Shown in pieces: positions 47,626-63,031 of a stretch of 64,000 nucleotides of DNA (within the stretch, counting starts at the first letter, position 1; each line of letters begins with the position of its first letter). A model generated the notes under the pieces. It ran no database searches, was not told where the DNA came from, and saw nothing but the letters and a program-made list of their open reading frames with translations. Source of the stretch: Anaeromicropila populeti (GTDB taxonomy: Bacteria > Bacillota > Clostridia > Lachnospirales > Lachnospiraceae); NCBI RefSeq assembly GCF_900112775.1, contig NZ_FOYZ01000002.1, positions 248,001 to 312,000 on the forward strand, given 5' to 3'. The translations under genes and the position numbers were made by a program.

Positions 47626-49018
47626 GTTATTAAAAACACCAGATAATTATTATGTTTATGATCGAAACAAAAATAAAATATTAAACATTAGTGAGGCAGA
47701 TTACTTGGAATTAAGTATGCTGAAAAAAAATGAAATATCTGAAAGTGAAGTAAGCTGTTTGAAGAAATTTCAGAAGAATGGGTACTTGCAGGAAAATATT
47801 GTGGAAGAAATTCAGCATCCAGAAACGAAATATATCAATCATTTTTTAAACAACAGAGTACGAATGCTGATTTTACAGGTTACGCAAAGCTGTAATTTAA
47901 GATGCGAATATTGTTCCTTTTCGGGAAATTATGAGAACAGAGTTCATTCCAACAAATTTATGACTTGGGAAACGGCGAAAAAAGCAATTGATTATTTATA
48001 TGAGCATTCAAGTGAAATGGACGAGGTCACCGTCAGTTTTTATGGAGGAGAACCTTTGCTTTGTTTAGATTTTATAAAAAAATGTGTGTTATACATAAAA
48101 GAAACGTATGCAGACAGAAAAACGTCATTTGGCATGACCACAAATGGAACACTATTAAGCCTGGAGGCAGCAGAATTTCTTTTTATCAATAATTTTTCTG
48201 TTACAATAAGTTTGGATGGATCTAAGAAGGATCATGATGCAAATAGAAAGTTTGCAGACGGTCGGGGCAGCTTTGATATTATTATGGAAAACATAAAAAG
48301 AATAGCAGAACATAATAAAGACTTCATTGACAAGGTAAGATTTAATACCGTGTTAAACACCAAATCGGATTATGGGACAGTAAGAAATTATTTTCTTTCT
48401 GAAGATATTGTATGTGATGCAAGTATTGGAATCGGTTTAGTGGAATCGATTAATAGTAAAGAAGATATTGTATTTGCAGATAAATTTGTGAATCAGCGGA
48501 GATATGATTTTTTTCTTTTATTAATTTCATTATTGAAAAAAGCAAATGGCGTATCACTGCCTGGTTTTGTAAAGGAATTAAAAAGCGGATTTGATTTAGA
48601 TTACTCGTCGATAGAAGATAACAGGTATTTGTCAAAGTCATGCCACCATTCAGGACCATGCATTCCAGGTGCTACAAGAATGTTTGTAAATACAGATGGT
48701 GGTATATATTCTTGTGAGAAGGTTTCTGAATACAGTGAAGTAATGAGAATCGGAGAGATAGAAACAGGGATAGACGTTCAGAAGGTTTCGGAAGCAATGA
48801 ACATAGGAAGCATTTCAGAAAAGGACTGTAAAAATTGCTGGGCACTTAACTGGTGTTCCATGTGTGCGCTATATGTTGAAAAAAATGGACAATTTGATGC
48901 TGCAACCAAAAAGGCTAATTGTGCACAGGCCATATTGGGTGCGGAGGATAAACTGTTAAATTTATGTGTACTAAAAGAATTTGGCTATAAATTCGGTAAG
49001 GAGGAACTTTATGTATAG
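47612..49018 (+). CDS. radical SAM/SPASM Cys-rich peptide maturase (CcpM-like)
   Basis: 468 residues. N-terminal RiPP-recognition-like domain (about 1-85), radical SAM core with CNLRCEYCSFSG (4Fe-4S) and YGGEPLL, and a SPASM region with Cys in CHHSGPCIPG, GIYSCEKVSE and CKNCWALNWCSMC. The type and neighbours match the CLI_3235-class maturases, which are expected to form thioether crosslinks on Cys-rich precursors. Overlaps both neighbours, so tightly coupled. Confidence 0.9.
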   Translation: MIVYKLLKTPDNYYVYDRNKNKILNISEADYLELSMLKKNEISESEVSCLKKFQKNGYLQENIVEEIQHPETKYINHFLNNRVRMLILQVTQSCNLRCEYCSFSGNYENRVHSNKFMTWETAKKAIDYLYEHSSEMDEVTVSFYGGEPLLCLDFIKKCVLYIKETYADRKTSFGMTTNGTLLSLEAAEFLFINNFSVTISLDGSKKDHDANRKFADGRGSFDIIMENIKRIAEHNKDFIDKVRFNTVLNTKSDYGTVRNYFLSEDIVCDASIGIGLVESINSKEDIVFADKFVNQRRYDFFLLLISLLKKANGVSLPGFVKELKSGFDLDYSSIEDNRYLSKSCHHSGPCIPGATRMFVNTDGGIYSCEKVSEYSEVMRIGEIETGIDVQKVSEAMNIGSISEKDCKNCWALNWCSMCALYVEKNGQFDAATKKANCAQAILGAEDKLLNLCVLKEFGYKFGKEELYV

Positions 49019-50093
49019 AGTATTGGTTTATCCATATAATCAAGGTGACAGTTGTCTGGCAGAGTATAGAAGTATGTTGGAACAATACGAAATTGTTAGT
49101 CTGGTATGCCTCAAAGGAGCAAATGAAAATGGAAAATTTGCGGGCGTACAGAAGGATACGTCAGCAGGCATTTTAATTACAGAAAACTATGAAGGTGAAA
49201 TGGATAAATGTGATGCAGTGCTATTTTTAGAGTATCATTTTTTGGAACACAAAGATACCTATATTGAAAAAATGGGATCGGCACTATTAAAAAACAAGGT
49301 CATTATGCTGAATCAAACTATATACGATGAATGTCAGAAATTAATAGGCGATAGTTCAAATATTGTTATTTTTGATAATAGTTTGGAAATGGAACTTCGT
49401 CAGCAGGTATATAAAAAAAGGTTGGTACAGCCTGACATTCCAGTAGCAGCAGTTATGTCATTAGGAGAGAATTGTAATAAGTTTGAGGCACAGCTTGAGC
49501 TAAGAAAAAAATTTATGGAAAAGGGATATAAAGTATTGCAATTTGGTACAAAGGATTACTGTGAACTTTTTGGGTTTAAGAAATTACCATCCTTTCTTAT
49601 GGCAGAGGATTTATCAATAGTCAACAAAATTCATATGTTTAATTATTATATAAACAGAGAAGTGTTAAAAGATAACTATGACGTGATCGTAATAGGGGGA
49701 GCAGGGGGAATCCTGCCCTTTGATCAGTACATATCAAATCACTTTGGGGAAATTACGTTTATTATCTCATCAGCACTGAATATTGATATAAATGTAATTT
49801 GCATATATCACAATGATCAGGCGAAAGTTGAGGAATTGAAAGAATTTCGTGAATATTGCAAAGGAAAAATAGGATGCTTCAGTGATTATTTTTATATGTC
49901 TGACAAGCAGTATCGAATACCAGAAAGTCATCAGATAGAGTATTTTCAATTGGACAGGCAGTATTGTATAAAAAGTATTCCAGAAATCAAGGACGATGAT
50001 ATTAAATTTTGCCATTGCTTAGATGAGGAGAAGAAAAGCCAAATGTTAGATTCTATCATATGTGAACTGGAAGAAAATATTGAGTTAGTATAA
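49011..50093 (+). CDS. peptide maturation system protein, TIGR04066-like
   Basis: 360 residues, starting MYRVLVYPYNQGDSCLAEYR. It resembles the TIGR04066 family found beside CLI_3235-type radical SAM maturases; a central DVIVIGGAGGILPFDQYISN may bind a nucleotide or cofactor. Precise reaction unknown. AAGGAGG fixes the ATG at 49011, overlapping the maturase by 8 bases. Confidence 0.8.
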   Translation: MYRVLVYPYNQGDSCLAEYRSMLEQYEIVSLVCLKGANENGKFAGVQKDTSAGILITENYEGEMDKCDAVLFLEYHFLEHKDTYIEKMGSALLKNKVIMLNQTIYDECQKLIGDSSNIVIFDNSLEMELRQQVYKKRLVQPDIPVAAVMSLGENCNKFEAQLELRKKFMEKGYKVLQFGTKDYCELFGFKKLPSFLMAEDLSIVNKIHMFNYYINREVLKDNYDVIVIGGAGGILPFDQYISNHFGEITFIISSALNIDINVICIYHNDQAKVEELKEFREYCKGKIGCFSDYFYMSDKQYRIPESHQIEYFQLDRQYCIKSIPEIKDDDIKFCHCLDEEKKSQMLDSIICELEENIELV

Positions 50094-50103
50094 AGGAGGA
50101 CGC

Positions 50104-50376
50104 ATGGACAGAAATGAAGTAATGAATACAATAAGAACCATTGTATATCAAGTGCTAAGAATAAATATTGAGGATGAAAATGATAATATACTGGGGTGCC
50201 ATCATAAGTATCCTGTTGCATATGCAATATACATAGTGGAAAGATTGGAAAAAATATATGGAAAAGGGCTATATGAGATTTTTGCTGAAAATGATTATAC
50301 TATCTGGAAATTATCCAATTTGACGGATGCCATAATAAAAGTATGCAGCACCAACCAAAAAGAAGTGCAGGAATAA
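50104..50376 (+). CDS. peptide maturation system acyl carrier-related protein
   Basis: 90 residues, helical, like the acyl-carrier-related proteins (TIGR04069-type) of these clusters: MDRNEVMNTIRTIVYQVLRI, then HHKYPVAYAIYIVERLEKIYGK. The usual DSL serine for phosphopantetheine is replaced by HHKYP, so it is probably not an active carrier. AAAGGAGGA precedes the ATG; 10 bases after the TIGR04066-like gene. Confidence 0.75.
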   Translation: MDRNEVMNTIRTIVYQVLRINIEDENDNILGCHHKYPVAYAIYIVERLEKIYGKGLYEIFAENDYTIWKLSNLTDAIIKVCSTNQKEVQE

Positions 50377-50384
50377 TAATACAT

Positions 50385-51506
50385 ATGAATAAATTGAAAG
50401 TTGCAATAGTAGATGATGGGGTATATGCAAGTGGTGTTCTTTCGTACAGCGTCACCGAAAATAATACAGTAATGCAGATAAATCACAAGCAATGTATTTC
50501 TAATCATGGGACACAATGCTACAACATATATTCCAGTATTGCTCATAATAAACAATGTATCAGTATAAAAGTAGGGGATTATGATTCAGCAGGCAGGCTT
50601 AACAGTGACAAACTATTGACTGCATTAGAATGGTGTTGTGACAACGAAATGAATCTAATATCTTTAAGCCTGGGCACTTCCTATGTGAATGAATTTTGGA
50701 AATACGAAGCGGTATTAAATAAATTAATGGATAGGAAAGCTGTTATTGTGGCAGCAATCAACAACAATAATCGATTAACATATCCAGCAGGCAAGGAAGG
50801 AATCATAGCAGTAAGATATGATAAGGAAAATGAACTGCCTCCTGGAAAATACGCTTTTCTTGAGAATGAATTAATCGGAACCAATATTGTTGTAAATCCA
50901 GTATTGAAAAATCTAGGAGACAAAACGAGTCAGGTCGCTTCCTGTAATAGTTTTGCTGTTCCTTATATGGCAGCTCTTATCAGCAACGCATTTACAAAAG
51001 AAACGGTATCCTTGGAAAATGTTCAGAATTGGCTGAAAACAACTGCCTACATGACAAAAGAAAAATTTGATAATAATTACTACAAAAACCTGTTATCCAA
51101 AAATGATTTTCTCAATCCCATTCACATCTGTGTGATTGCAGATGAGAGAATACGTGGATTAGCAGATTGGTTTAATCAAAATCAGTATACGGCAGTTGAA
51201 TTGGAAATAAATACCTGTATTAAATGGAAATTGATGAAACGGTCGGTTTTAAAAGAGGATTTTAAGCTTTTATGCGAAGTGATATGCTGGACAGCACAGC
51301 CAGACATTATTTTTTGGTATACAAAGCCGCCTTATCTTGAGGATGAAATGGCACATTTTTTCGATGCCGTAGTCTTACAGAATACTGATAAAGCAGATTA
51401 TGATTATAGTAAATTACTTTGTACAGACGGAGTTATATTGAGCTATAAGGAAATGGATATTTGTAATGAAAGGGTAGCGCAAGATATAGAGGAGACCTTT
51501 TCGTAG
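50385..51506 (+). CDS. subtilisin-like (S8) protease of the RiPP cluster
   Basis: 373 residues. Catalytic motifs in order: Asp in VAIVDDGVYAS, His in CISNHGTQCY, the oxyanion region IVAAINNNNRLTYPA, and Ser in ASCNSFAVPYMAAL (in place of GTSMAAP). No signal peptide, so it acts in the cytosol, and with an exporter lacking a peptidase it is the best candidate for cutting the leader. A C-terminal domain of about 130 residues (from HICVIADERIRG) is unassigned. Start at 50385, 8 bases after the previous gene. Confidence 0.85.
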   Translation: MNKLKVAIVDDGVYASGVLSYSVTENNTVMQINHKQCISNHGTQCYNIYSSIAHNKQCISIKVGDYDSAGRLNSDKLLTALEWCCDNEMNLISLSLGTSYVNEFWKYEAVLNKLMDRKAVIVAAINNNNRLTYPAGKEGIIAVRYDKENELPPGKYAFLENELIGTNIVVNPVLKNLGDKTSQVASCNSFAVPYMAALISNAFTKETVSLENVQNWLKTTAYMTKEKFDNNYYKNLLSKNDFLNPIHICVIADERIRGLADWFNQNQYTAVELEINTCIKWKLMKRSVLKEDFKLLCEVICWTAQPDIIFWYTKPPYLEDEMAHFFDAVVLQNTDKADYDYSKLLCTDGVILSYKEMDICNERVAQDIEETFS

Positions 51507-51568
51507 ATATGTTTCATTGTAAAAATGATTACATATAAATTAAAAATCTAAAAAAGGAGGTGTGAATT

Positions 51569-51760
51569 ATGAAAAAACTATCAAAAAGAAATCAATTAGC
51601 ACCAAATACAGTACTTGCATTTGGATGCAGCTGTGCATGCAGTTGTGGATGTACTTCAAGATGCATGGGTAATGGAACAATTGAAGCTGCTATAAATAGT
51701 AGTATATGGTCAAGCATCAGTGGTGGTACATATACAGCAATGGAGCAGTTTGGTGTGTAA
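51569..51760 (+). CDS. Cys-rich RiPP precursor (CLI_3235-type)
   Basis: 63 residues. Leader MKKLSKRNQLAPNTVLAFG is followed by a core with Cys at 20, 22, 24, 26, 28 and 32 (alternating C-X-C) and a Ser/Thr/Ile-rich tail to FGV. The K-K-L start and NTV-A-F motif match CLI_3235-family precursors. AAAAGGAGG precedes the ATG. It is last in the operon, followed by a terminator. Expected product: a crosslinked, possibly ranthipeptide-like peptide. Confidence 0.87.
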   Translation: MKKLSKRNQLAPNTVLAFGCSCACSCGCTSRCMGNGTIEAAINSSIWSSISGGTYTAMEQFGV

Positions 51761-51931: not shown

Positions 51932-53122
51932 ATGCACCAAATGCTGCAACAATCTATGGACCCGGAACTCCAAAAAACACTGGAGAATAAAGTGAATGGG
52001 CCAGAAAAAAAAGAGTATCGTTCTTTTAGAAAGCTAAATCAGCCAAATGCGTTTGCGGACCAATTTGTGCAAAGAAAAGAAGATGACAAGATTGTGATAC
52101 AAATGGAACGGCATGAAAATAATAAACTAGAACCACAGTCATTTGGACAATCGCCTGCTAAGTATTACGATAAAGGTAATTTAAAAGAACTTGGAATGAC
52201 CTGCCATCATATCATTCCAGATGATATGCTATCCATTTTTTTTAAATGGCTTACAACTAATGCGACAGTTAATATTAACAGCGAATTTACAAAATGGAAG
52301 GATGCCGCAGCTGAAAACCTTGTGGATGATAAGCGGCAGAAGCAGGATAAGGATGAAGCTTCACTTTGCGAGTGGATGTATGGAAATATTTTTATCGGAC
52401 CAAGCTGTACGTTGCGTGTGGATGATTTTGGTAAATCGGATGAATTTGATTATGGTGGTTATGTAGAATCTGTAAAACCAGAAGATGCAGGAATAAACCC
52501 ACAGATGGACACACTGCTTGGTATATATAATAGACTTAAAACATTATTTAAAGATATAGATAATCCAAAAAAAGTATTTGTTGTAGCTGATAATGAAGTC
52601 AGGATTATCAACATATTAACTGATTTGACCAATGTTGCAAAAAAAAATGCTACATTACATAATAGTGAGAAAACCAAAACAACATCAAAGACGGTAAATC
52701 CTGAAAAAGTAGCGTACGCCTTAGGAAATTGGATAAATGTAGGAGATGTGCCACTAAAGGAACCTTCAGAACCATATAATGCAGATCCCTCGCAAGTACC
52801 AAATGCAGTTATTGACAGTAAAAAGGATGAGTTTGCAGAATGGATTAAGTATTATATGATTTATGACAAATATAAAAAAAATCTAAAATTAAAACAGGGC
52901 AGTAAAGGGAAAAAAGACTTTAGTGCTGTAGTTTTAACGGAAGCAGATAGTACTGGACTAGATGGATTTTACAACACTTTTGGCATGTTTATTAATACAA
53001 AAAAATATAAACAAGGAAGTCCCCTGCTTATCGCAAAACATACCTATTTAGTAATTAAACCATCTTACACAAATATAATGGGAATTTTGGGCAAATTAGA
53101 TGGCATTAGTGCCATTTTATAG
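51932..53122 (+). CDS. unknown protein with CHHIIP (HNH/His-Me-like) motif
   Basis: 396 residues, family not recognised. Around residue 91-100 is LGMTCHHIIPDDML, followed about 60 residues later by EWMYGNIFIGPS and RVDDFGKSDEFDYG. A CHHIIP motif plus a GN-x-F-x-GP/R-DD segment is reminiscent of HNH- or His-Me-finger nucleases and of cargo toxins. No signal peptide or membrane helix. It has its own consensus promoter and terminator, so is a single-gene unit between the RiPP locus and a sigma-factor gene. Nuclease activity is inference only. Confidence 0.6.
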   Translation: MHQMLQQSMDPELQKTLENKVNGPEKKEYRSFRKLNQPNAFADQFVQRKEDDKIVIQMERHENNKLEPQSFGQSPAKYYDKGNLKELGMTCHHIIPDDMLSIFFKWLTTNATVNINSEFTKWKDAAAENLVDDKRQKQDKDEASLCEWMYGNIFIGPSCTLRVDDFGKSDEFDYGGYVESVKPEDAGINPQMDTLLGIYNRLKTLFKDIDNPKKVFVVADNEVRIINILTDLTNVAKKNATLHNSEKTKTTSKTVNPEKVAYALGNWINVGDVPLKEPSEPYNADPSQVPNAVIDSKKDEFAEWIKYYMIYDKYKKNLKLKQGSKGKKDFSAVVLTEADSTGLDGFYNTFGMFINTKKYKQGSPLLIAKHTYLVIKPSYTNIMGILGKLDGISAIL

Positions 53123-53144
53123 GGATAAAATCATTTAAAGGTAC

Positions 53145-53172
53145 AGAGTCCTATAGGAAAGGGCTCTTTATT
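53145..53172 (+). terminator. intrinsic terminator
   Basis: AGAGTCCT (53145-53152) / AGGGCTCT (53160-53167) then TTATTTTT. Confidence 0.75.
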
Positions 53173-53229
53173 TTTGGATTAATTTTAAGAAAACATGTAA
53201 CGAAACCAATTATGAATACACTAATTAAA

Positions 53230-53245
53230 CAGAAACATGTTTCTG
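53230..53245. promoter_or_regulatory. 16-bp palindrome before the first ECF gene
   Basis: CAGAAACATGTTTCTG, perfect, ending just before the AAGGAAGGTGG ribosome-binding site. A related AAACATGTAACGAAAC lies about 40 bases upstream and contains TGTAAC, a plausible ECF -35. It may be an operator or an RNA hairpin. Confidence 0.4.
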
Positions 53246-53260
53246 AAGGAAGGTGGTTTG

Positions 53261-53770
53261 TTGCAAAAAGACAATATAGATAAGTTATACCAGCAACATA
53301 GTCAGATGATATATCGTTTTCATTATTTTAGGACTGGAAATCGTGAACTTGCGGAGGAACTAACGCAAGAAACATTTTATCAGGCTTTTCTATCTTATGA
53401 TAATTTCCGGGGAGAATGTAAGGCTTCCACCTGGTTGTACCAGATTGCAAAAAATGTATGGAGACAGTATCAAAGAAAGAAAAGGGAGTGTTATCCCATA
53501 GAAAAACTTCTAGAACAAATTCCCCAGGAAAAATCTTTTGATCCACTTAATGCTTATCTTGCAAAGGAAGAAAAAAATACTTTTTGCAATGCATTAAAAC
53601 AATTGACAAAAGAAATGCAGGAGGTAGTTATTTTAAGGGTTGTAGATGAATTAAAATTTTCAGAAATAGGAGAAATAATGAATAAAAGCGAAACATGGTC
53701 CAGGACTAATTATTTTAGAGCCAAAAAGAAATTGCAGGAATATATAGATAATATGGAAAGTGGTGATTAA
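53261..53770 (+). CDS. ECF sigma factor (first module)
   Basis: 169 residues from TTG 53261, which is 6 bases after AAGGAAGGTGG; an ATG at 53237 lies in a palindrome without a site. Region 2 is RELAEELTQETFYQAF and STWLYQIAKNVWRQY; region 4 is LTKEMQEVVILRVVDELKFS with a helix-turn-helix. The anti-sigma gene starts 2 bases later. It should respond to an envelope or extracellular signal via that membrane protein. Confidence 0.92.
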   Translation: MQKDNIDKLYQQHSQMIYRFHYFRTGNRELAEELTQETFYQAFLSYDNFRGECKASTWLYQIAKNVWRQYQRKKRECYPIEKLLEQIPQEKSFDPLNAYLAKEEKNTFCNALKQLTKEMQEVVILRVVDELKFSEIGEIMNKSETWSRTNYFRAKKKLQEYIDNMESGD

Positions 53771-53772
53771 AA

Positions 53773-54618
53773 ATGAAATTGAATTGTTACATAGTAGAGG
53801 ATTTAATGCCAGCTTATATTGAAAACTTAACAAGCACAAATACCAGTCAAGATATTCAGGAGCATCTGAAAGAGTGTGATGGGTGTAAAAAGCTGTATAA
53901 TGATCTGAAGGAAGAAATTTCATTTGAGAAAACAGCAGAAAAAAACAGAAGAAAGCAGGAAAAGAATGATTTAATGTATTTGGGTAAAATAAGAAAATCA
54001 CAAGATAAAAAGGCTGTTATTAGCTTGGCTGTATTTGTATGCATTACCGTATTACTACTTAAAATTATATGGAATTATAATAAAAATATGGATAGGAGTA
54101 TTTATTTATCGTATGGAATACTTACACTTGCCATACTAACGGGAGGATTGCTTTGCTATAAAAATTTTGAGGCAGTCAAAAAAGTTAAATATGATTTATG
54201 GGCAGGACAGGGAATTGTAGGAATAGCTGCAATTACTAATATTTTTATTACGTATAGAACATTTTCCTGGACAGCCAGTCAAGTATATCCGTTTAATCTA
54301 CAAGCTTATGAGATGGGCCCATTTGTAGCAAAATTTTTATGCGCAGGCATTAGCATCGGTGCAATAGTATTCTTTTATGGAGCTGTATGTATTATAAAAA
54401 AATCTTATGCATACTATTTTCTATGTGGGCATGCTGTTAGCCTGGTATGTATGGACATTGGTTTGTATAGAATTCTAAAAACACTTACTAGTATAGAAGA
54501 CTATAGAAGGCTTTGTTTCCTGATAGGAGGAATTTATTTATTGGGAAGCGGAATGACAGTGATACTATGGAGTGCGCTGAAGAATTACTGGTTAAAAAAA
54601 GTTGACAAGCAAGAATAA
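53773..54618 (+). CDS. zinc-finger anti-sigma factor, multi-pass membrane
   Basis: 281 residues. The N-terminal ZAS domain has the HXXXCXXC motif (EHLKECDGCKKLY) that binds the ECF factor, then a coiled linker and about six membrane helices. Such multi-pass anti-sigma factors sense membrane-active signals. Two bases separate it from the sigma gene. The lectin promoter overlaps its stop codon. Confidence 0.88.
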   Translation: MKLNCYIVEDLMPAYIENLTSTNTSQDIQEHLKECDGCKKLYNDLKEEISFEKTAEKNRRKQEKNDLMYLGKIRKSQDKKAVISLAVFVCITVLLLKIIWNYNKNMDRSIYLSYGILTLAILTGGLLCYKNFEAVKKVKYDLWAGQGIVGIAAITNIFITYRTFSWTASQVYPFNLQAYEMGPFVAKFLCAGISIGAIVFFYGAVCIIKKSYAYYFLCGHAVSLVCMDIGLYRILKTLTSIEDYRRLCFLIGGIYLLGSGMTVILWSALKNYWLKKVDKQE

Positions 54619-54630
54619 AATGTATATAAT
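54602..54630 (+). promoter_or_regulatory. consensus promoter of lectin-like gene 1
   Basis: TTGACA (54602-54607), 17-base spacer, TATAAT (54625-54630), overlapping the anti-sigma 3' end. It looks like sigma-A, so strong constitutive expression is expected. Confidence 0.85.
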
Positions 54631-54670
54631 TTACAATGCAATACAATAAATATGAAATGGAGGAATTTAA

Positions 54671-55060
54671 ATGGCAAACACAGCTACCTATAAAATAGGT
54701 AATATTGAAAAAGGCAACATTATGTTTTGGTCTGTTTGTACACAATGTGGCAGTCATGGAGTTGTAACACTGAAAGATGATCAGCAGACATATTTTACTG
54801 CAAAGAAGGACACAGACGATTGGAATTTACAGTCGTTAGCGCAAGCCTATGCAATTTATCAAGGAGGAGACAATCTACGTCTTGAAGTTGAAGTTACATA
54901 TCCAAATGCAGATATTGAGCAAAGTATTAATTCGTATAATATAACAGATCCAAGTTCCAATATTGTTGGATATGGATATAACTATTGTATTGAAGATTCA
55001 ACGGATAATGACTATAACGATTATTACATAGATCTTGTTGCTTGGAGGAAGAAAGGGTAA
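54671..55060 (+). CDS. LecB/PA-IIL-like calcium lectin, copy 1
   Basis: 129 residues starting MANTATYKIGN. The C-terminal loop EDSTDNDYNDYYIDLVAW (residues 108-125) matches the two-calcium site of Pseudomonas LecB (EDGTDNDYND...INW): E108, D112, D114, N116 and D117 are all kept. The N-terminal strand pattern and length also fit. The Asn of LecB's sugar loop appears to be Gln here, and the C-terminus is extended by RKKG, so sugar specificity may differ. No signal peptide, as in LecB. Own promoter and terminator. Confidence 0.75.
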   Translation: MANTATYKIGNIEKGNIMFWSVCTQCGSHGVVTLKDDQQTYFTAKKDTDDWNLQSLAQAYAIYQGGDNLRLEVEVTYPNADIEQSINSYNITDPSSNIVGYGYNYCIEDSTDNDYNDYYIDLVAWRKKG

Positions 55061-55085
55061 TAAAGGAATTATGTAAAAAGAATAG

Positions 55086-55127
55086 AAAAAAGCTGGGTAC
55101 TGGAAATAAAGTATCTGGCTTTTTTTG
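55086..55127 (+). terminator. intrinsic terminator of lectin-like gene 1
   Basis: AAAAAAGCTGGGTACT (55086-55101) / AGTATCTGGCTTTTTT with wobble pairs and a T7 run. Confidence 0.8.
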
Positions 55128-55263
55128 TACAGGAAGAACGTCGTTGAATGGACATTATAAATCCCTAGCAAAAAATTATTAAATTAATCCGCACATTTTG
55201 CTCATAAAAACAGTTATAATAAATAGAACGGTGAAAAGTCAGAAAGGGAGGAATCAGAAGCAG

Positions 55264-55713
55264 ATGGATTTAGAAGAACAGTATTACAAAATATTTCGCT
55301 ACTGCTGTTTAAAGGTAAAGCGTACAGCAATTGCAGAAGATTTAACCCAAGAAACTTTTCTCCGCTATTTTAGCCAAAGCACGTACATAGAACTGGGGAA
55401 ACAGACTGCATATTTGTATACCATTGCAAGAAATTTGTGCAACGATTATTTTAGTAAACAGATATATTGGGAAGAATTAAAGGACGATGTGCCGTATACA
55501 GAGGGAGATACGGATATGAAGCTGACTGTGAGACAGGCAGTTGAGATGCTGCCCAAGGATTTGCAGGAGATTGTATTATTGCGTTTTGTAAATGAAGTAC
55601 CTGTAAAAGACATTGCAGCATTTATGGAACTATCTCGTTTTGCAGTAAACCGGAGAATCAAAGATGCGTTGAAACGGTTAAAAGAAGTGTTGAGAGAGGA
55701 GGATTTTTCATGA
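55264..55713 (+). CDS. ECF sigma factor (second module)
   Basis: 149 residues. Region 2: AIAEDLTQETFLRYFSQS and AYLYTIARNLCNDYF; region 4: MLPKDLQEIVLLRFVNEVPV with helix-turn-helix (ELSRFAVNRRIKDALKRL). ATG at 55264 is 12 bases after GGAGG, somewhat long, but no better start is in frame. No anti-sigma gene follows; instead it overlaps (ATGA) a membrane protein gene of an ABC-2 system, a known arrangement for bacitracin-type or exporter-linked ECF factors. Confidence 0.88.
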   Translation: MDLEEQYYKIFRYCCLKVKRTAIAEDLTQETFLRYFSQSTYIELGKQTAYLYTIARNLCNDYFSKQIYWEELKDDVPYTEGDTDMKLTVRQAVEMLPKDLQEIVLLRFVNEVPVKDIAAFMELSRFAVNRRIKDALKRLKEVLREEDFS

Positions 55714-56462
55714 ACCTGTCAGATAATAGAAAAATAGTAAAGCTAGTAAAAGAGAGCTATGAACCTCTGGTTCCAAAAAACAAGCCAGATTTTTTGAAAA
55801 AGGCTGAATACCCCAAGCTGTCTTTTAAGGAATTTTTTATTGGGCAAATCCAGTATATCAGACTGAGAACATGGCTTGTCTCCATACTATTGTTTGTGAG
55901 TGCGTTGTTTATAATAGAATTAAGCAGCTTTTATAATATGAATGTTAGTGCAATAAAAGCAGCATCTGCGTTTGTACCATTTTTTGTATTGGCAGCAGTT
56001 GCAGAAACAGCACGTTCTAAGCAGTATGGAATGAAGGAATTAGAGATGACCTGCCGGTTTTCTTTTGGAACATTGCTGTTGGTAAAAATGATCTTGCTGG
56101 GAATCTTGAACCTGCTTTTGCTAAGTGGATGCAGCATTTTCCTACGGTTCCAGACAGATATAAAACTTTTTCGAATTGGAATTTATTTGTTAGTTCCCTT
56201 TTTACTAACTTGCAATTTAACCCTAATTCTGGCCAGTCTGTTTAAAAGCAGAGAGATTACCTATTTTTGTGGATTTGTTTGTGGCATTGTGTCAGTCAGC
56301 TGTCTTTTTACGGATGCTTTGGTCATAGATATTTACAGTGCAAAGTATGACGTGTATTGGCTTTTATCAGTTGGGGTGCTCATGTTGGTGCTGGTTCAAA
56401 AAATCGTTCAGATAATTAAAAATTCAGGAGGTATTCTATGGAACTTGTCATTGACAGGATAA
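55710..56462 (+). CDS. membrane protein of the second ECF module
   Basis: 250 residues. An about 50-residue cytosolic N-terminus (could serve as the sigma-binding part) and about six hydrophobic helices. It resembles membrane proteins encoded between ECF sigma factors and ABC-2 ATPases in clostridia; may be a permease half or an anti-sigma-like sensor. Coupled to both neighbours (4- and 25-base overlaps). Confidence 0.65.
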   Translation: MNLSDNRKIVKLVKESYEPLVPKNKPDFLKKAEYPKLSFKEFFIGQIQYIRLRTWLVSILLFVSALFIIELSSFYNMNVSAIKAASAFVPFFVLAAVAETARSKQYGMKELEMTCRFSFGTLLLVKMILLGILNLLLLSGCSIFLRFQTDIKLFRIGIYLLVPFLLTCNLTLILASLFKSREITYFCGFVCGIVSVSCLFTDALVIDIYSAKYDVYWLLSVGVLMLVLVQKIVQIIKNSGGILWNLSLTG

Positions 56463-57319
56463 CGAAGCAGTTTAAAAATAAAATAGCAGTGGATCACGTA
56501 TCTCTGAAGCTGAAGGAAGGCGTGTATGGATTACTGGGAGCAAACGGAGCAGGAAAGACAACATTAATGCGTATGATGTGCGGGTTAATGGTTCCAGATA
56601 GTGGAACAATAGCATTAGATGGAATCAGCATGGAAGAAGAGCAGTATCGTGATGTGCTTGGATATCTGCCGCAGGATTTTGGATATTATCCAGACTTTAC
56701 TGCCCTTGAATTTCTCATGTATATGGCATCTTTAAAAGGAATTCCCAAAATAAGAGCAAAGGAAAAGACAGCAATGCTTTTAGAACAGGTGAATTTAAAA
56801 GATGTGGCAAAGAAAAAAATAAAGACCTATTCGGGTGGTATGAAGCAGCGCCTAGGAATTGCACAGGCTTTATTAAATAACCCTAATCTGCTTGTGTTGG
56901 ATGAACCTACCGCTGGATTAGATCCGAAGGAAAGAGTTAAGTTTCGGAATATGATTTCCGAGTTGGGAAAAGACAGAATTGTTTTGTTATCTACCCATAT
57001 TGTTTCAGACGTGGAATATATTGCGGATTATATCATGGTTATGAAAAAAGGTACTATTATACATAAAGGAGCACGAGAAGACATATTGAAAAGTATCGAT
57101 GGAAAGGTGTGGGAATGTGTAGTACCAGAGAAAACAGCATTGGATTTGGAAAGGAAATTTCCAGTTATTAATATCCGAAATGAAAAAGAGGGGATATTTC
57201 TCCGATTGGTTTGTGAACATATGCCATATGAAACAGCATCTATATGTACCGCATCTTTGGAAGATTTATATCTTTATTATTTTAGTGATGAGATAAGCGA
57301 AGGGGAGGGGCAGCCATGA
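56438..57319 (+). CDS. ABC-2 type transporter ATPase
   Basis: 293 residues. Walker A GANGAGKTTLMR, Q-loop LPQDFGYYPDFTA, signature YSGGMKQRLGIAQAL, Walker B LLVLDEPTAGLDP, H-loop STHIVSD. It belongs to the drug/lantibiotic-immunity group. AGGAGG lies within the preceding gene. Partner permease overlaps by 4 bases. Confidence 0.92.
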   Translation: MELVIDRITKQFKNKIAVDHVSLKLKEGVYGLLGANGAGKTTLMRMMCGLMVPDSGTIALDGISMEEEQYRDVLGYLPQDFGYYPDFTALEFLMYMASLKGIPKIRAKEKTAMLLEQVNLKDVAKKKIKTYSGGMKQRLGIAQALLNNPNLLVLDEPTAGLDPKERVKFRNMISELGKDRIVLLSTHIVSDVEYIADYIMVMKKGTIIHKGAREDILKSIDGKVWECVVPEKTALDLERKFPVINIRNEKEGIFLRLVCEHMPYETASICTASLEDLYLYYFSDEISEGEGQP

Positions 57320-58551
57320 GAGAACTGTTGAATCTAATAAAATTTGAATACTATAAAATGTTTAAGAAAAAGTCTCTTTGGTTTATTTTGGCTGGACTAT
57401 TCGGACTGAGCATGCTTGGAAGTGTTGCAATGCTTTTGGGAAATACCTATGATATGGAAGGAGAAGTAACTGGAACCAGGTATGAAGAGATGCAGGCGGA
57501 ACGAAAGAATGCCAGGGCGTTAGGAGGAAGAACCATTGATGCGGCATTAATACAGGAGGTGCAGGAGGCATATAGGTCATATTTTTCACAGGCAGAGGAA
57601 ATCAGTGATGAAGAGGAAAAGGAAAAGCTTTATGAGGATACAGTAAAAAAATACGAGCCAATCATGGAAATATTGTCTCAAGTATATACAGGTTCGTATA
57701 ATTCCCAAGAATTCATTTTAGATTTAACAGAAGATGACAGAAATCAATTTTATGAAACGTTAAAGCAGAAGCAGAAGCAATTATGGGAGGAATACTTTTT
57801 CCTAACCAAAGAAGAAGAGAGCAAACTATTAGATTATCAACAACAAATTAAAACACCATTTATATATAACTATGGTGCAGGATGGATGCGATATGAAATT
57901 TTATTGTATTCGCTCAGTGTATTTTTGATGCTGGCATTGGCAATTTGCCTGGCACCTGTTTTTGGGGGAGAGTATACCAGTAAAATGGATGCATTAATAC
58001 TTTCCTCTAAGTATGGCAAAAGTAAAGTGATTCAAGCAAAATTAATTATGGCAGTTACTTTTACAATTGGCGTCACAACTGTACTTTTGGGAATTCAATT
58101 ACTAGAGATTATGTTAATTTACGGGGCCGATGGCTGGAAAAATCCAATTCAGTTCTGGAGCTTAACACAAATTGTTTTTCCATTTAACCAAATAGAAGCA
58201 ATTGGAATTTATGTGTTATGTGTCATTCTTGCAGTATTATTTTTAACGGCAATTGTTAGTTTGTTATCAGCCAAGTTGAAATCTCCATTTGGGGTTATTG
58301 TCATTTGTTTTATGGTTATAATTATACCTATGTTTTTGGATATACCAGAGCAATATCGGATGCTCAATTCCATTTATCGCTTGCTTCCTATTTGCATGAC
58401 CCAGGAATGGAATGTTTTTTGTCATTATATGTATGGTATAAATAATGTTATTGTTCCCACATATATATTCATACCTTTATTTGCATTAGCAGCAGTTGTA
58501 TTATTAAATATTTGGGCTTTCAAAGTGTTTAAAAAGCACCAGGTTGCATAA
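57316..58551 (+). CDS. ABC-2 type transporter permease
   Basis: 411 residues: TM1 at about 20-40, a roughly 150-residue charged extracellular domain, then about five C-terminal helices (MLALAICLAPVFGGEY begins the second). The layout is typical of ABC-2 permeases in peptide-resistance exporters. It forms a unit with the ATPase and the second ECF factor. Confidence 0.85.
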   Translation: MRELLNLIKFEYYKMFKKKSLWFILAGLFGLSMLGSVAMLLGNTYDMEGEVTGTRYEEMQAERKNARALGGRTIDAALIQEVQEAYRSYFSQAEEISDEEEKEKLYEDTVKKYEPIMEILSQVYTGSYNSQEFILDLTEDDRNQFYETLKQKQKQLWEEYFFLTKEEESKLLDYQQQIKTPFIYNYGAGWMRYEILLYSLSVFLMLALAICLAPVFGGEYTSKMDALILSSKYGKSKVIQAKLIMAVTFTIGVTTVLLGIQLLEIMLIYGADGWKNPIQFWSLTQIVFPFNQIEAIGIYVLCVILAVLFLTAIVSLLSAKLKSPFGVIVICFMVIIIPMFLDIPEQYRMLNSIYRLLPICMTQEWNVFCHYMYGINNVIVPTYIFIPLFALAAVVLLNIWAFKVFKKHQVA

Positions 58552-58587
58552 ATCTATAGGTCTTATATGGTAAAAGGTATCAGGCAT

Positions 58588-58618
58588 TTGCTATATTTTT
58601 TATAGTTAAGAATATAAT
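58588..58618 (+). promoter_or_regulatory. promoter of lectin-like gene 2
   Basis: TATAAT (58613-58618) with TTGCTA (58588-58593) at a 19-base spacing. As in copy 1, the -10 is followed by TTA and then AATGCAA before the start. Confidence 0.5.
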
Positions 58619-58652
58619 TTATTGTAATGCAAATTGAGGTGGAGGATTGTAA

Positions 58653-59042
58653 ATGGCGAATACAGCAACTTTCCAACTAAATAATTTTGAAAATGGAAAT
58701 ATTATGTTTTGGTCAGTTTTTGCTCAGACGGGGACACATGGAACGATTACGTTAAAAGACAATAAGAAGGAGTATTTTTCTGTAAGAAAAGGAACGGATG
58801 ATGAACGGATTGTATCTTTAGCTCAAAGCTCAGCAGTTTATCAAGGAAAAGCAAACCTTTGTATTGAAATTGATATTCCAGATAGAGGGGTAGACATTAA
58901 GCAAAGTATTAATTCGTATAATATGGTAGATACAAATTCTAATGTAATTGCGTGTGGATATAATTTTTGTATTGGAGCTGCAACAGATAAGGATTACAAT
59001 GATTACTATATCAATATTATTGCCTGGAAGAAGAAAAAATAG
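58653..59042 (+). CDS. LecB/PA-IIL-like calcium lectin, copy 2
   Basis: 129 residues, collinear with copy 1 (MANTATFQLNN start, QSINSYN, DYNDYYIN-IIAW). The calcium loop reads GAATDKDYNDYY: D112, D114, N116 and D117 are kept, but the first Glu is Gly, so one calcium ligand differs. GGTGGAGG precedes the ATG. It ends the ECF-ABC gene group, followed by a bidirectional terminator. The pair probably arose by duplication and diverged. Confidence 0.72.
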   Translation: MANTATFQLNNFENGNIMFWSVFAQTGTHGTITLKDNKKEYFSVRKGTDDERIVSLAQSSAVYQGKANLCIEIDIPDRGVDIKQSINSYNMVDTNSNVIACGYNFCIGAATDKDYNDYYINIIAWKKKK

Positions 59043-59068
59043 ATATTATAAATAGAATAAATCTAACT

Positions 59069-59106
59069 AACTGCTGGATATTGTGAAACAAGTACCCAGC
59101 AGTTTT
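59069..59106. terminator. bidirectional terminator
   Basis: AACTGCTGG (59069-59077) / CCAGCAGTT (59096-59104) between the convergent lectin and MFS genes. Confidence 0.85.
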
Positions 59107-59129
59107 AGTCATTAAAATAAGTAAGATAA

Positions 59130-60302
59130 CTATCTTTTTTTTGTTCTTTGGTAGGAATTCATTCGTTCCACCATGATTACCATAAGAACAACAAATAGAA
59201 TCAGGTAGACAGGATACAGGCGGATGGTAATGTGTTCTGCAAGAAAACCGAACACAGGTGGCATAAAGGTAGTTCCTACATAGGCACATGCCATTTGTAC
59301 CCCCATAATGGCCTGAGAGTTTTCGGAACCAAAATGGCCAGGTGTCTGGTGAAGTAAGCTTGGGTAAATAGGAGCACAGCCGATACCTGTAAGAATCAGT
59401 CCCACTAAAGTAGCAGATTGACCAGGGGCTGCCAGTAATAATACCAATCCGATGGCGGCCATACATTGCCCCATACGTATCATAAGCTTATTGCCTAACC
59501 TATCCGCAATAAAACCACAGATAAAGCGTCCAAGGGTAATACCTAAGTAAAACAAGGATGCCCATTTTGCAGCGGTTTTAGCATCAATTCCTTTGTGAAG
59601 AACCATGTAACTGCTGGCCCAGAGACCAGTAGTGGCTTCTAAGGCACAGTAACAAAAAAAAGCAGTTAAAATTGCTTTCGCACCAGGCAATTCTATAATT
59701 TCTTTTAGGCTAAGCCCCTTTTTTAGTTGAGATTCAGATTGTTCAGAAGGGCTATTTTTTTTCCATAGAGGAAGTGAAAGCAGCAGGCAAAGAACCAGAC
59801 CTAACTGCATCAGACCAATAAACTGATATCCAGAATTCCATCGCAGCCCATTGGTCAGACATAAGCCCATAATATAAGGACCGGCAGTAGCACCAATACC
59901 CCAGAAACAATGTAACCAGCTCATATGCCGTGCTTTGTAATGTAATGCTACAAAATTATTCAAGGCAGCGTCTACACTCCCCGCCCCCATTCCATATGGA
60001 ATTCCCCATAGACACAACAGCCAGAAGGAATGTGAAAACGAAAAGCCTAATAAGGCAGCGGAGGTCATGGCAACACTGGCAGCGGTAACAATTCCTGTAC
60101 CAAATTTCCGAATGATTTTATCACTATACAGACTGGATAAAATGGTTCCAGCCGCAATAATCATACTAATAATTCCAGCATAAGAAACAGGTACATTTAA
60201 TTCTCCATACATAGAAGGCCAGGCAGAGCCAAGAAGAGAATCAGGTAAGCCAAGACTGATAAATGCAATATAAATGACTAATAATAATAACGTAGCTGTC
60301 AT
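59130..60302 (-). CDS. MFS transporter
   Basis: 390 residues with about 12 helices, starting MTATLLLLVIYIAFISLGLP; a GIPYGMGAGSVDAALNNFVA and GRFICGFIADRLGNKL (MFS loop motif) are visible. Resembles fucose/sugar-permease or FSR-like families of Firmicutes. Divergent from the AraC gene, which may control it; the sugar-type cupin regulator suggests a carbohydrate substrate. Confidence 0.85.
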   Translation of the reverse strand: MTATLLLLVIYIAFISLGLPDSLLGSAWPSMYGELNVPVSYAGIISMIIAAGTILSSLYSDKIIRKFGTGIVTAASVAMTSAALLGFSFSHSFWLLCLWGIPYGMGAGSVDAALNNFVALHYKARHMSWLHCFWGIGATAGPYIMGLCLTNGLRWNSGYQFIGLMQLGLVLCLLLSLPLWKKNSPSEQSESQLKKGLSLKEIIELPGAKAILTAFFCYCALEATTGLWASSYMVLHKGIDAKTAAKWASLFYLGITLGRFICGFIADRLGNKLMIRMGQCMAAIGLVLLLAAPGQSATLVGLILTGIGCAPIYPSLLHQTPGHFGSENSQAIMGVQMACAYVGTTFMPPVFGFLAEHITIRLYPVYLILFVVLMVIMVERMNSYQRTKKR

Positions 60303-61384: not shown

Positions 61385-63031
61385 TTAATATACTAAATCA
61401 TAAAGTAAGTTGTAATCATCTGTATTAATTGCTCCATCTCGGTTCATATCTGCTAAAACATTGTAATAGCCTTCTATAGAGTACATAGCATATCCACGTA
61501 CTTCATCTGCCATACAGTTTAAATCATATTGGGTAAGTTCTCCATCATGGTTAAGATCACCTATAATGGTATCACATATAGGCAGATTAACTGCGTACAT
61601 CGATTTATTTACTCCAAAACTGTATTTTGTAAAGGAATTATTACATAAATCCACATATGCTGGATGAATAGAGGAGTATTCTTGAGCTGTCTTTAAAAAG
61701 TAAGTTGTGCCAGCATAGCTTCCACAGTCATCCCAGGTTGGATCAATTTCCAACCAGATTCCATTTAGCTGTACCACAACCCAGGCATGGTTTGAACCGG
61801 AAACGGGACAGTTAGTAATACCCACTTTATCCAGTAATAATGACATACCTAAGGCATAACCTTCACATACCGTGGTGTCTCCAAGAAAGATAGAACTAAT
61901 GCAATGGTTTTTCATATCAGATGTTTCGCCACTGGTATAAGCTACTTTATTTACAACATAAGTATAGAGGGCTTTTATTTTTTGATAGTCATTCATACCA
62001 TCTTCTATGTAAGTATCTACAGCATATTGCACCTCTTGCTCAACTAATGAAATTGCAACAGGTACATCTTCAAATGCATATATATTATCTTGAAAGACTG
62101 ATTTAATAGCAGGAGTCCAGTTTACATAATCGGCTCTTGTTGTAATGTTATTAATTGAAGTTATTTGACAGCCTCTAAATGCAGAGGCATCAATGGTTTC
62201 AATATTTGCTGTTAAATTCAGATTTTGTAAAAGAGATACATTTGTAAAGGAATATGTGCCAATGGTAGTGACACTGTTAGGAATTGTAAAATCAGTTGCA
62301 GCCTTTTTTTGAGGATACCAAAGAAGTACAGTTTTATCTAAATTATATAGAACCCCGTTTTCACTGGAGAAAAAAGTGTTTCCTGGTAAAACTTCAACGG
62401 CTTCCAGATTTGGAAAGCTAATTTTCTCTAGAGGGTCGCCTGTATAGCTTGATTTTCCTGTGTAACTTGCAGGTATTTTAATAATATGTATGTTAGGACA
62501 GGTTTCAATACCATTGATGGAAGATTCAGTAAAGCCATCTGGCAGATTCAGCGTATTACAGGTATTCATTTGCGGTAATCGTAGTAGTTTTGTCTGAGCC
62601 TTATTATATAGAATACCATCTATATCACAGTAGTTTGGATTGTCATCGCTTACTTCAATGGAAACCAGACTAGTCATCTTAATAAAGCAAGAATTATCTA
62701 TCTTTGAAATATTGGATCCAATGTTAACCTGTGTAATAGAAGTGTTCCAACTTAATGCGGTCCATGGAATCTCAGTAATATCATAGGTAACAGAGTTAGA
62801 TGTAAGCTGTGCTGGAATTGTCACCTGAGTATCAGTACCCAGATAGTTTTGTATTTTACCATCCGCAGTAAATGTCCATAGGCCATCATCAGAGGTCAGC
62901 GTGGTTGCGGCATAAACTGTGTTGGAGTGAAATACGGAAGGAAGCATTGTAATTTGATCAAAGCATCCAATGGCGGCAACTAAACCAAGTAAGCATGTAA
63001 TAATATTGATTCTTCTTACTATTTTTTTCAT
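61385..63031 (-). CDS. secreted LRR-transglutaminase-like protein with dockerin
   Basis: 548 residues. Signal peptide (about 1-41, ending TVYAAT); BspA/LRR_5 repeats at about 60-315 (ITEIPWTALSWNTSITQVNI, TIPNSVTTIGTYSFTNV); a transglutaminase-like domain with Cys in TTVCEGYALGMSLL, His in GSNHAWVVVQL and Asp in EIDPTWDDCG; and a C-terminal type I dockerin with two calcium loops (GDLNHDGELTQYDL, ADMNRDGAINTDDY). AAAGGAGATATG lies before the start. It is probably docked to a cohesin scaffold; none is in the window. Confidence 0.9.
   Translation of the reverse strand: MKKIVRRINIITCLLGLVAAIGCFDQITMLPSVFHSNTVYAATTLTSDDGLWTFTADGKIQNYLGTDTQVTIPAQLTSNSVTYDITEIPWTALSWNTSITQVNIGSNISKIDNSCFIKMTSLVSIEVSDDNPNYCDIDGILYNKAQTKLLRLPQMNTCNTLNLPDGFTESSINGIETCPNIHIIKIPASYTGKSSYTGDPLEKISFPNLEAVEVLPGNTFFSSENGVLYNLDKTVLLWYPQKKAATDFTIPNSVTTIGTYSFTNVSLLQNLNLTANIETIDASAFRGCQITSINNITTRADYVNWTPAIKSVFQDNIYAFEDVPVAISLVEQEVQYAVDTYIEDGMNDYQKIKALYTYVVNKVAYTSGETSDMKNHCISSIFLGDTTVCEGYALGMSLLLDKVGITNCPVSGSNHAWVVVQLNGIWLEIDPTWDDCGSYAGTTYFLKTAQEYSSIHPAYVDLCNNSFTKYSFGVNKSMYAVNLPICDTIIGDLNHDGELTQYDLNCMADEVRGYAMYSIEGYYNVLADMNRDGAINTDDYNLLYDLVY

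What the first reader, a model, noticed from the sequence alone, without database searches (positions are those of the whole stretch)
54671..59042. Two LecB-like calcium lectins interleaved with two ECF sigma modules
Two 129-residue paralogues carry the Pseudomonas LecB calcium-loop pattern (EDSTDNDYND at 108-117; GAATDKDYND in copy 2) and end in a short strand with Trp. LecB-like proteins are known mainly from Proteobacteria; here they sit in a clostridial genome around an ECF-ABC exporter unit and after an ECF/anti-sigma pair. Neither has a signal peptide. They may bind plant or host glycans, or act with the exporter in envelope stress. The loss of one calcium ligand in copy 2 suggests division of labour.
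Basis: partly seen in the sequence, partly recalled or inferred. Interest (0 to 1): 0.8.

Follow-up and report, generated by a model that had tools for sequence, protein, structure and literature searches.

The report
Unrecognised relatives of LecB calcium lectins
Two neighbouring small bacterial proteins are predicted to fold like the two-calcium sugar-binding lectins of Pseudomonas and a marine sponge, and belong to a rare family that standard libraries miss; the stress-regulator genes between them look like bystanders.

Summary
Two 129-residue paralogues (54671-55060, 58653-59042; 55% identical) carry the LecB-type calcium loop. No Pfam or NCBIfam model matches either (PF07472 included), yet confident AlphaFold models of both match thrombocorticin (Z about 15) and LecB-family lectins (Z 11-13) best; the next unrelated fold scores 7.8 or less. 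I found 12 relatives in 11 other genomes; one is fused to dockerin repeats and two look secreted. Copy 1 keeps the LecB loop ligands, the glutamine that thrombocorticin needs for sugar binding, and a C-terminal glycine. Copy 2, alone of 14 members, lacks both E108 and D109; it also ends in Lys and evolved faster, but under constraint. So the LecB-like reading is right at the level of fold. The ECF/exporter link is not supported: copy 1 has its own sigma-A-type promoter, no relative checked has ECF neighbours, and the ECF-ABC module is common without the lectin. Best reading: copy 1 is a working two-calcium lectin for fucose- or mannose-type sugars, copy 2 a diverged partner. Calcium and sugar binding are untested; the C-terminal tail is one or two residues longer than in the known lectins.

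The parts
54671..55060 (+). Lectin-like protein, copy 1 (129 aa): site residues Q25, E108, D109, D112, D114, N116, D117, C-terminal G129
   Evidence: ORF; AlphaFold pLDDT 91.2; fold matches thrombocorticin Z 15.3 and LecB family Z 11.2-13.1; residues
58653..59042 (+). Lectin-like protein, copy 2 (129 aa): keeps Q25, D112, D114, N116, D117; has G108, A109, K129
   Evidence: ORF; AlphaFold pLDDT 87.2; fold matches thrombocorticin Z 15.5 and LecB family Z 11.4-13.3; residues
54602..54630 (+). Promoter-like site TTGACA-17-TATAAT before copy 1, overlapping the end of the anti-sigma gene
   Evidence: Only 12-of-12 match among 26 sites listed in 53000-59300; shuffles give 27.8 sites in all
58588..58618 (+). 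Weaker promoter-like stretch before copy 2 (TTGCTA, 19 bases, TATAAT)
   Evidence: Read by eye; spacing outside the range of the scan, which does not list it
55085..55126 (+). 17-pair hairpin with T-run after copy 1, terminator-like
   Evidence: RNA fold of 55061-55150, -21.5 kcal/mol; not listed by the scan
59070..59103 (+). Hairpin after copy 2, terminator-like
   Evidence: RNA fold of 59043-59125, -18.1 kcal/mol; not listed by the scan
53237..53770 (+). ECF sigma factor 1 (neighbour, probably a bystander)
   Evidence: Sigma70_r2 E 2e-14, Sigma70_r4_2 3.7e-10
53773..54618 (+). Anti-sigma protein with zf-HC2 domain (neighbour)
   Evidence: zf-HC2 E 3e-7
55264..55713 (+). ECF sigma factor 2 (neighbour; ATG start chosen by eye, the listed ORF begins at TTG 55198)
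   Evidence: Sigma70_r4_2 E 6e-11, Sigma70_r2 7.5e-10 for ORF 55198-55713
55710..58551 (+). 250-aa membrane protein, ABC ATPase and 411-aa membrane protein of the ECF-ABC module (neighbours)
   Evidence: ABC_tran E 1.1e-33 for 56438-57319; relatives of the 250-aa protein in 30 of 150 genomes

Best explanation
The two proteins belong to an uncatalogued family of small two-calcium beta-sandwich lectins, a sister of LecB (PA-IIL) and thrombocorticin. [quoted passage not shown] Copy 2 arose by duplication, keeps the fold and four of the loop ligands, but lost E108, D109 and the terminal Gly; it most likely binds calcium and sugar weakly or differently. Copy 1 has its own sigma-A-type promoter; the ECF and exporter genes between the copies are bystanders. 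Shown by computation: the ORFs, homology, predicted folds, residue conservation, lack of conserved linkage. Inferred: calcium binding, dimerisation, sugar binding, the route out of the cell.
For: Folds: all 25 PDB matches at E<=0.001 for copy 1 are thrombocorticin or LecB-family chains; thrombocorticin Z 15.3, LecB family 11.2-13.1, next row 7.8; copy 2: 15.5, 11.4-13.3, 6.7. Sequence: 9-row profile finds LecB in the PDB at E 7.3e-5. Residues over 14 members: D112 14, D117 14, D114 13, N116 13, D109 13, E108 12 plus one Asp, Q25 12, 12 residues after D117 in 12, terminal Gly 8. Thrombocorticin loses fucose binding with Q25K and needs its C-terminal Gly; profile alignment puts its Q25 on the family's Gln. 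Promoter. Linkage. Pair under constraint: dN 0.29, dS 1.20.
Against: Neither copy matches PF07472. DUF4114 gives sub-threshold matches to more members than PF07472 does (6 against 3 of 9, best E 0.00012 against 0.00064). Adding a tenth row weakened the LecB match from 7.3e-5 to 0.0013. With the loop masked the profile scores of thrombocorticin and LecB fall to 4.4 and 6.4 bits, reached by 7 and 44 of 5000 shuffles, so sequence support outside the loop is slight. The tail is one residue longer than in thrombocorticin and two longer than in LecB (alignment ends), and one extra Gly harms thrombocorticin. Terminal Gly is absent in 6 of 14. Models are of single chains from 7-row alignments; no binding was tested.
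Confidence: 0.62

Rival explanations
1. Same fold and probably calcium binding, but no longer a lectin: the site serves folding, oligomer assembly or protein contact.
For: The tail length differs from LecB and thrombocorticin; 6 of 14 members lack the terminal Gly, and copy 2 lacks E108 and D109; no enzyme or glycan gene is conserved beside the family.
Against: D109, which touches sugar in LecB, is kept in 13 of 14, and Q25, needed for sugar binding in thrombocorticin, in 12 of 14; one member is fused to dockerin repeats, as carbohydrate-active proteins often are (the last clause recalled).
Confidence: 0.22
2. The proteins act with the ECF sigma factors or the ABC exporter in envelope stress, as regulated product or cargo.
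For: The genes alternate in the window, and copy 1 follows the anti-sigma gene closely.
Against: A 12-of-12 sigma-70-type site precedes copy 1; no homologue of the ECF, anti-sigma, 250-aa or 411-aa proteins at E<=1e-3 in stretches of 5.2-19 kb around relatives in 7 other genomes; the 250-aa protein occurs in 29 other genomes of 150, none of which gave a full-length lectin match (judged by handle numbers; G015 and G132 had only weak partial matches).
Confidence: 0.08
3. The loop is a general calcium loop on another sandwich, for example DUF4114-like, and the LecB likeness is superficial.
For: Sub-threshold DUF4114 matches in 7 of 8 relatives scanned, best 23.3 bits against a cut-off of 27; PF07472 matches in only 4 of those 8, best 20.5 against 21. 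Copy 1 alone finds only weak legume-lectin matches in the PDB, best E 0.035.
Against: Fold gap of 15 and 11-13 against 7.8 and 6.7, with 111-120 of 129 residues aligned; the thrombocorticin stretch itself shows a weak DUF4114 match (13.3 bits) and no PF07472 match, so this pattern does not tell the families apart.
Confidence: 0.06

Closest known systems
Thrombocorticin (PDB 7f91, 7f9f; PMC9700728), two-calcium fucose lectin of a marine sponge
   Same: Nine strands; best fold match of both copies (Z 15.3 and 15.5); Q25, G15 and the D.D.ND loop correspond; no PF07472 match either
   Different: About 16% identity; loop longer between the Asn-Asp pair and the D.D.ND part; tail one residue shorter; disulfide C3-C111 in thrombocorticin
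LecB / PA-IIL of Pseudomonas and relatives (Pfam PF07472)
   Same: Fold Z 11.2-13.3; loop EDSTDNDYND identical in copy 1 and LecB of strain PA7
   Different: 10-17% identity; no PF07472 hit; tail two residues longer
DUF4114 (Pfam PF13448)
   Same: Sub-threshold matches reaching the same loop and following strand
   Different: No member scanned reaches the cut-off of 27 bits; best 23.3

Membership tests
Two-calcium beta-sandwich lectins (fold class of LecB and thrombocorticin) | LecB-type fold | tested here: met
   Predicted models of both copies against solved structures
Two-calcium beta-sandwich lectins (fold class of LecB and thrombocorticin) | Calcium-loop ligands (LecB E95, D99, D101, N103, D104) | tested here: met
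   All five present in copy 1; four of five in copy 2 (E108 is Gly) (roles)
Two-calcium beta-sandwich lectins (fold class of LecB and thrombocorticin) | C-terminal carboxylate of the partner protomer completes the site | tested here: inconclusive
   Copy 1 ends in Gly and 12 of 14 members have exactly 12 residues after D117, but the tail is 1-2 residues longer than in known lectins; single-chain models only
Two-calcium beta-sandwich lectins (fold class of LecB and thrombocorticin) | Binds two calcium ions and fucose- or mannose-type sugar | not testable with these tools
   Needs calorimetry or a structure
Pfam PF07472 (PA-IIL) | Curated Pfam score of 21 bits | tested here: not met
   No match for either copy at E<=1; best relative 20.5 bits (L012). 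The thrombocorticin stretch fails too
Pfam PF13448 (DUF4114) | Curated Pfam score of 27 bits | tested here: not met
   No match for either copy at E<=1; best relative 23.3 bits (L005)
ECF-regulated or ABC-exported lectin system | Conserved gene linkage | tested here: not met
   No ECF, anti-sigma, 250-aa or 411-aa homologue beside relatives in 7 other genomes; module without lectin in many genomes
ECF-regulated or ABC-exported lectin system | ECF-type promoter at the lectin genes | tested here: inconclusive
   Copy 1 has a perfect sigma-70-type site; copy 2 a weaker stretch seen by eye; the binding motifs of these ECF factors are unknown

The most novel reading that the evidence does not exclude
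A rare, probably mobile family of two-calcium lectins has spread among anaerobes of at least three lineages (the host's family and Clostridia, Spirochaetota, the Victivallales phylum) in free, secreted and dockerin-borne forms. In this genome a duplicated pair has split into an intact lectin and a partner with a rebuilt site, possibly forming mixed dimers in which the Lys-ending tail of copy 2 completes the site of copy 1 and shifts its specificity. Like thrombocorticin, such proteins could cross-link fucosylated glycoproteins of an animal host.
Probability: 0.2. Interest if true: 0.75.

Novelty: new variant of a known kind. Interest (0 to 1): 0.5.

Why it matters
LecB-type lectins are drug targets in Pseudomonas, and thrombocorticin activates a human cytokine receptor (PMC9700728). 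Finding the fold in Clostridia, spirochaetes and Victivallales, outside the standard family models, widens where this unusual two-calcium sugar binding may occur. The window also offers a natural pair, one intact site and one altered site, to test what each ligand and the C-terminal tail contribute.

Tried and rejected
PF07472 in the host's family: 0 of 100 genomes matched, but 0 of 14 control genomes rang either, so that search says little. PDB search with copy 1 alone gave only legume-lectin matches, best E 0.035; with L015 alone only BC2L-A at 0.72. Profiles were needed to reach LecB. An early idea that N104 here equals calcium ligand N107 of thrombocorticin was dropped after reading the paper: its N107-D108 pair falls on E108-D109, with a longer loop behind.

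Matches dropped: 5 of the 8 genomes had only partial matches at E 0.0026-0.0096 inside long ORFs (L006-L010); I inspected one, L008, a binding-protein-like lipoprotein by eye. The third match in the own genome (E 1.07) was dropped.

Viral contigs, plasmids and phages gave no relative; PHROGs only weak hits, best 0.014. The viral fold library gave 3 matches at E<=0.001, TM at most 0.45. L044 passes the cut-off of PF21200, Glyco_hydro_39_C (28.8 against 27 bits, residues 46-103); I take this as a partial sandwich likeness, but it is a curated hit and stands against a clean assignment of that member. All 8 Gly-ending members have Q25 and both members without Q25 lack Gly; this fits thrombocorticin but is too few and too related to count.

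Literature: searches for LecB/PA-IIL with Clostridi*, PF07472, UniLectin terms, dockerin with LecB terms, and LecB with phylum names listed no report of this family in the rows shown (listings are capped; one search was swamped by unrelated papers). Term searches inside three papers gave nothing on it. Most subscription papers are not held.
Full report
What is there. The window is part of an unnamed 4.2 Mb genome in 44 contigs, probably clostridial (closest relative of copy 1 is in a Clostridia MAG). Two ORFs of 129 codons, 54671-55060 and 58653-59042 (+), are 55% identical and are the only convincing members in that genome. Between them lie an ECF sigma gene, a 250-aa membrane protein, an ABC ATPase and a 411-aa membrane protein; before copy 1 lies an ECF sigma gene with a zf-HC2 anti-sigma gene.

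What kind of protein. No Pfam or NCBIfam model matches either copy at E<=1 (HMMER's filters drop most weak matches). AlphaFold models from 7-row alignments are confident: copy 1 pLDDT 91.2, copy 2 87.2, nine strands each. For copy 1 all 25 PDB matches at E<=0.001 are thrombocorticin or LecB-family chains. VIA-align gives thrombocorticin Z 15.3 (rmsd 2.5, 120 aligned), LecB-family entries 11.2-13.1, and the next row, a GOLD domain, 7.8. For copy 2 the figures are 15.5, 11.4-13.3 and 6.7. By sequence, a 9-row profile finds LecB at E 7.3e-5; with a tenth row it is 0.0013, and a 4-row subset gives LecB 0.011 and thrombocorticin 0.038. The loop carries much of this: the full profile beats all 5000 shuffles for both proteins, but with residues 100-121 masked the scores fall to 4.4 bits (thrombocorticin) and 6.4 (LecB), reached by 7 and 44 of 5000 shuffles. 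Homology outside the loop is thus weak in sequence and rests mainly on the predicted fold.

Does missing PF07472 matter? Of 9 members, 3 show a PF07472 match and 6 a DUF4114 match, all below the cut-offs. The best PF07472 score is 20.5 bits against 21 (L012), the best DUF4114 score 23.3 against 27 (L005). A 117-residue stretch of thrombocorticin has no PF07472 match and a weak DUF4114 one, although thrombocorticin is a solved two-calcium lectin (PMC9700728; passages, sections 8 and 9). The Pfam model is therefore too narrow to exclude the reading. I call the family a sister of PF07472, not a member.

Site residues. LecB's two calcium ions are held by N103, main-chain N21, D99, D101, D104, E95, the C-terminal G114 of the neighbour, and fucose; D96 touches the sugar (PMC8752737, passages; similar account in passages of PMC1903359). 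Thrombocorticin uses D117, N119, D120 and the partner's G131 for one ion and N107, D115, D117, D120 for the other; Q25K abolishes and one extra C-terminal Gly diminishes fucose binding. Copy 1 has E108, D109, D112, D114, N116, D117, Q25 and G129. Over 14 members: D112 14, D117 14, D114 13, N116 13, D109 13, E108 12 plus one Asp, Q25 12, W125 11, terminal Gly 8, exactly 12 residues after D117 in 12. Copy 2 is the only member without an acid at 108 and the only one without D109. The tail ends one residue beyond thrombocorticin's and two beyond LecB's in the fold alignments, so the partner-carboxylate step stays a hypothesis.

Duplication. In a 14-sequence FastTree the copies are sisters (support 0.875), with branches of 0.19 to copy 1 and 0.44 to copy 2. 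dN is 0.29 and dS 1.20, so the pair as a whole is under constraint and copy 2 does not look like a dead gene.

Distribution. Members are rare and scattered: 4 loci in the genome-contig scan; 3 full-length of 299 genomes of the host's family, its own included (five weak partial matches dropped); 2 of 391 in its class, its own included; 1 of 61 nearest relatives and 1 of 348 in its phylum, both times only its own; 1 of 296 in the phylum of the Treponema genome, only that genome; 4 of 145 in the phylum of the Victivallales genome, that one included; 2 of 61 in the genus of G672, that one included; 1 of 24 in the family of the L011 genome, only that one. In all 14 members lie in 12 genomes. Forms differ: L015 and L044 begin with a signal-peptide-like stretch (by eye); L004 follows two dockerin repeats (Dockerin_1 E 1.2e-18); L013 has two members in tandem. 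L041 and L042 lie near HTH/IrrE-type genes, L041 also near an ORF with a sub-threshold recombinase zinc ribbon, L042 beside an MT-A70 methylase, L044 beside a PDDEXK_2 transposase-family gene, and L014 follows what reads by eye as a type I restriction cluster. This hints at mobility.

The ECF idea. A TTGACA-17-TATAAT site, the only 12-of-12 match in 53000-59300, lies at 54602-54630 before copy 1; the total of 26 sites is what shuffles give (27.8), so only its perfection is notable. Hairpins follow both genes, though the scan does not list them. In stretches of 5.2-19 kb around relatives in 7 other genomes (L011-L014, L036-L040) phmmer found no homologue of the ECF, anti-sigma, 250-aa or 411-aa proteins at E<=1e-3; ABC ATPases appear only around L011. 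The ORF lists of L041, L042 and L044 (3.4 kb each) show none by eye; neighbours of L043 were not listed. The 250-aa protein occurs in 30 of 150 genomes of the family, the own one included; by handle numbers the other 29 were among the genomes, where none had a full-length lectin match. The simplest account is a lectin duplication around, or an insertion of, an independent module.

How it probably works. Copy 1: a calcium-dependent, probably dimeric lectin for fucose- or mannose-type sugars. Neither copy has room for a signal peptide (first strand from residue 2 or 4). LecB is likewise found at the outer membrane of Pseudomonas (PMC3466170, start of abstract in the listing) and lacks a signal peptide (recalled). 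Own polysaccharide, plant polysaccharide or host glycans are all possible targets; nothing here decides between them.

Noticed in passing
window 48981-51760: RiPP-like group before ECF1: a 63-aa CLI_3235-family bacteriocin precursor (TIGR04065, 43.9 bits, cut-off 26), a subtilase-like ORF related to QhpE, and a 370-aa ORF with no Pfam match.
   Followed up: partly
window 51932-53122: 396-aa ORF between the bacteriocin group and ECF1 with no Pfam match.
   Followed up: no
window 61385-63031 (-): 548-aa protein with BspA-type LRR repeats, a transglutaminase core and a weak dockerin match (15.1 bits, cut-off 22.9).
   Followed up: no
window 55710-56462: The 250-aa membrane protein of the ECF-ABC module has no Pfam hit above a cut-off yet occurs in 30 of 150 genomes of the host's family: perhaps an uncharacterised anti-sigma or ABC partner.
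   Followed up: partly
L004 1498-2301 (-): Relative of the lectins preceded by two dockerin repeats in one ORF, without an obvious signal peptide, next to histidine-biosynthesis-like genes by eye.
   Followed up: partly
L041, L042, L044, L014: Relatives near HTH/IrrE, recombinase-like, MT-A70, PDDEXK_2 transposase-family or restriction genes, suggesting mobile or defence islands.
   Followed up: partly
L011 5410-6597: DUF6765 protein (E 1.4e-45) directly after the closest relative of copy 1.
   Followed up: no
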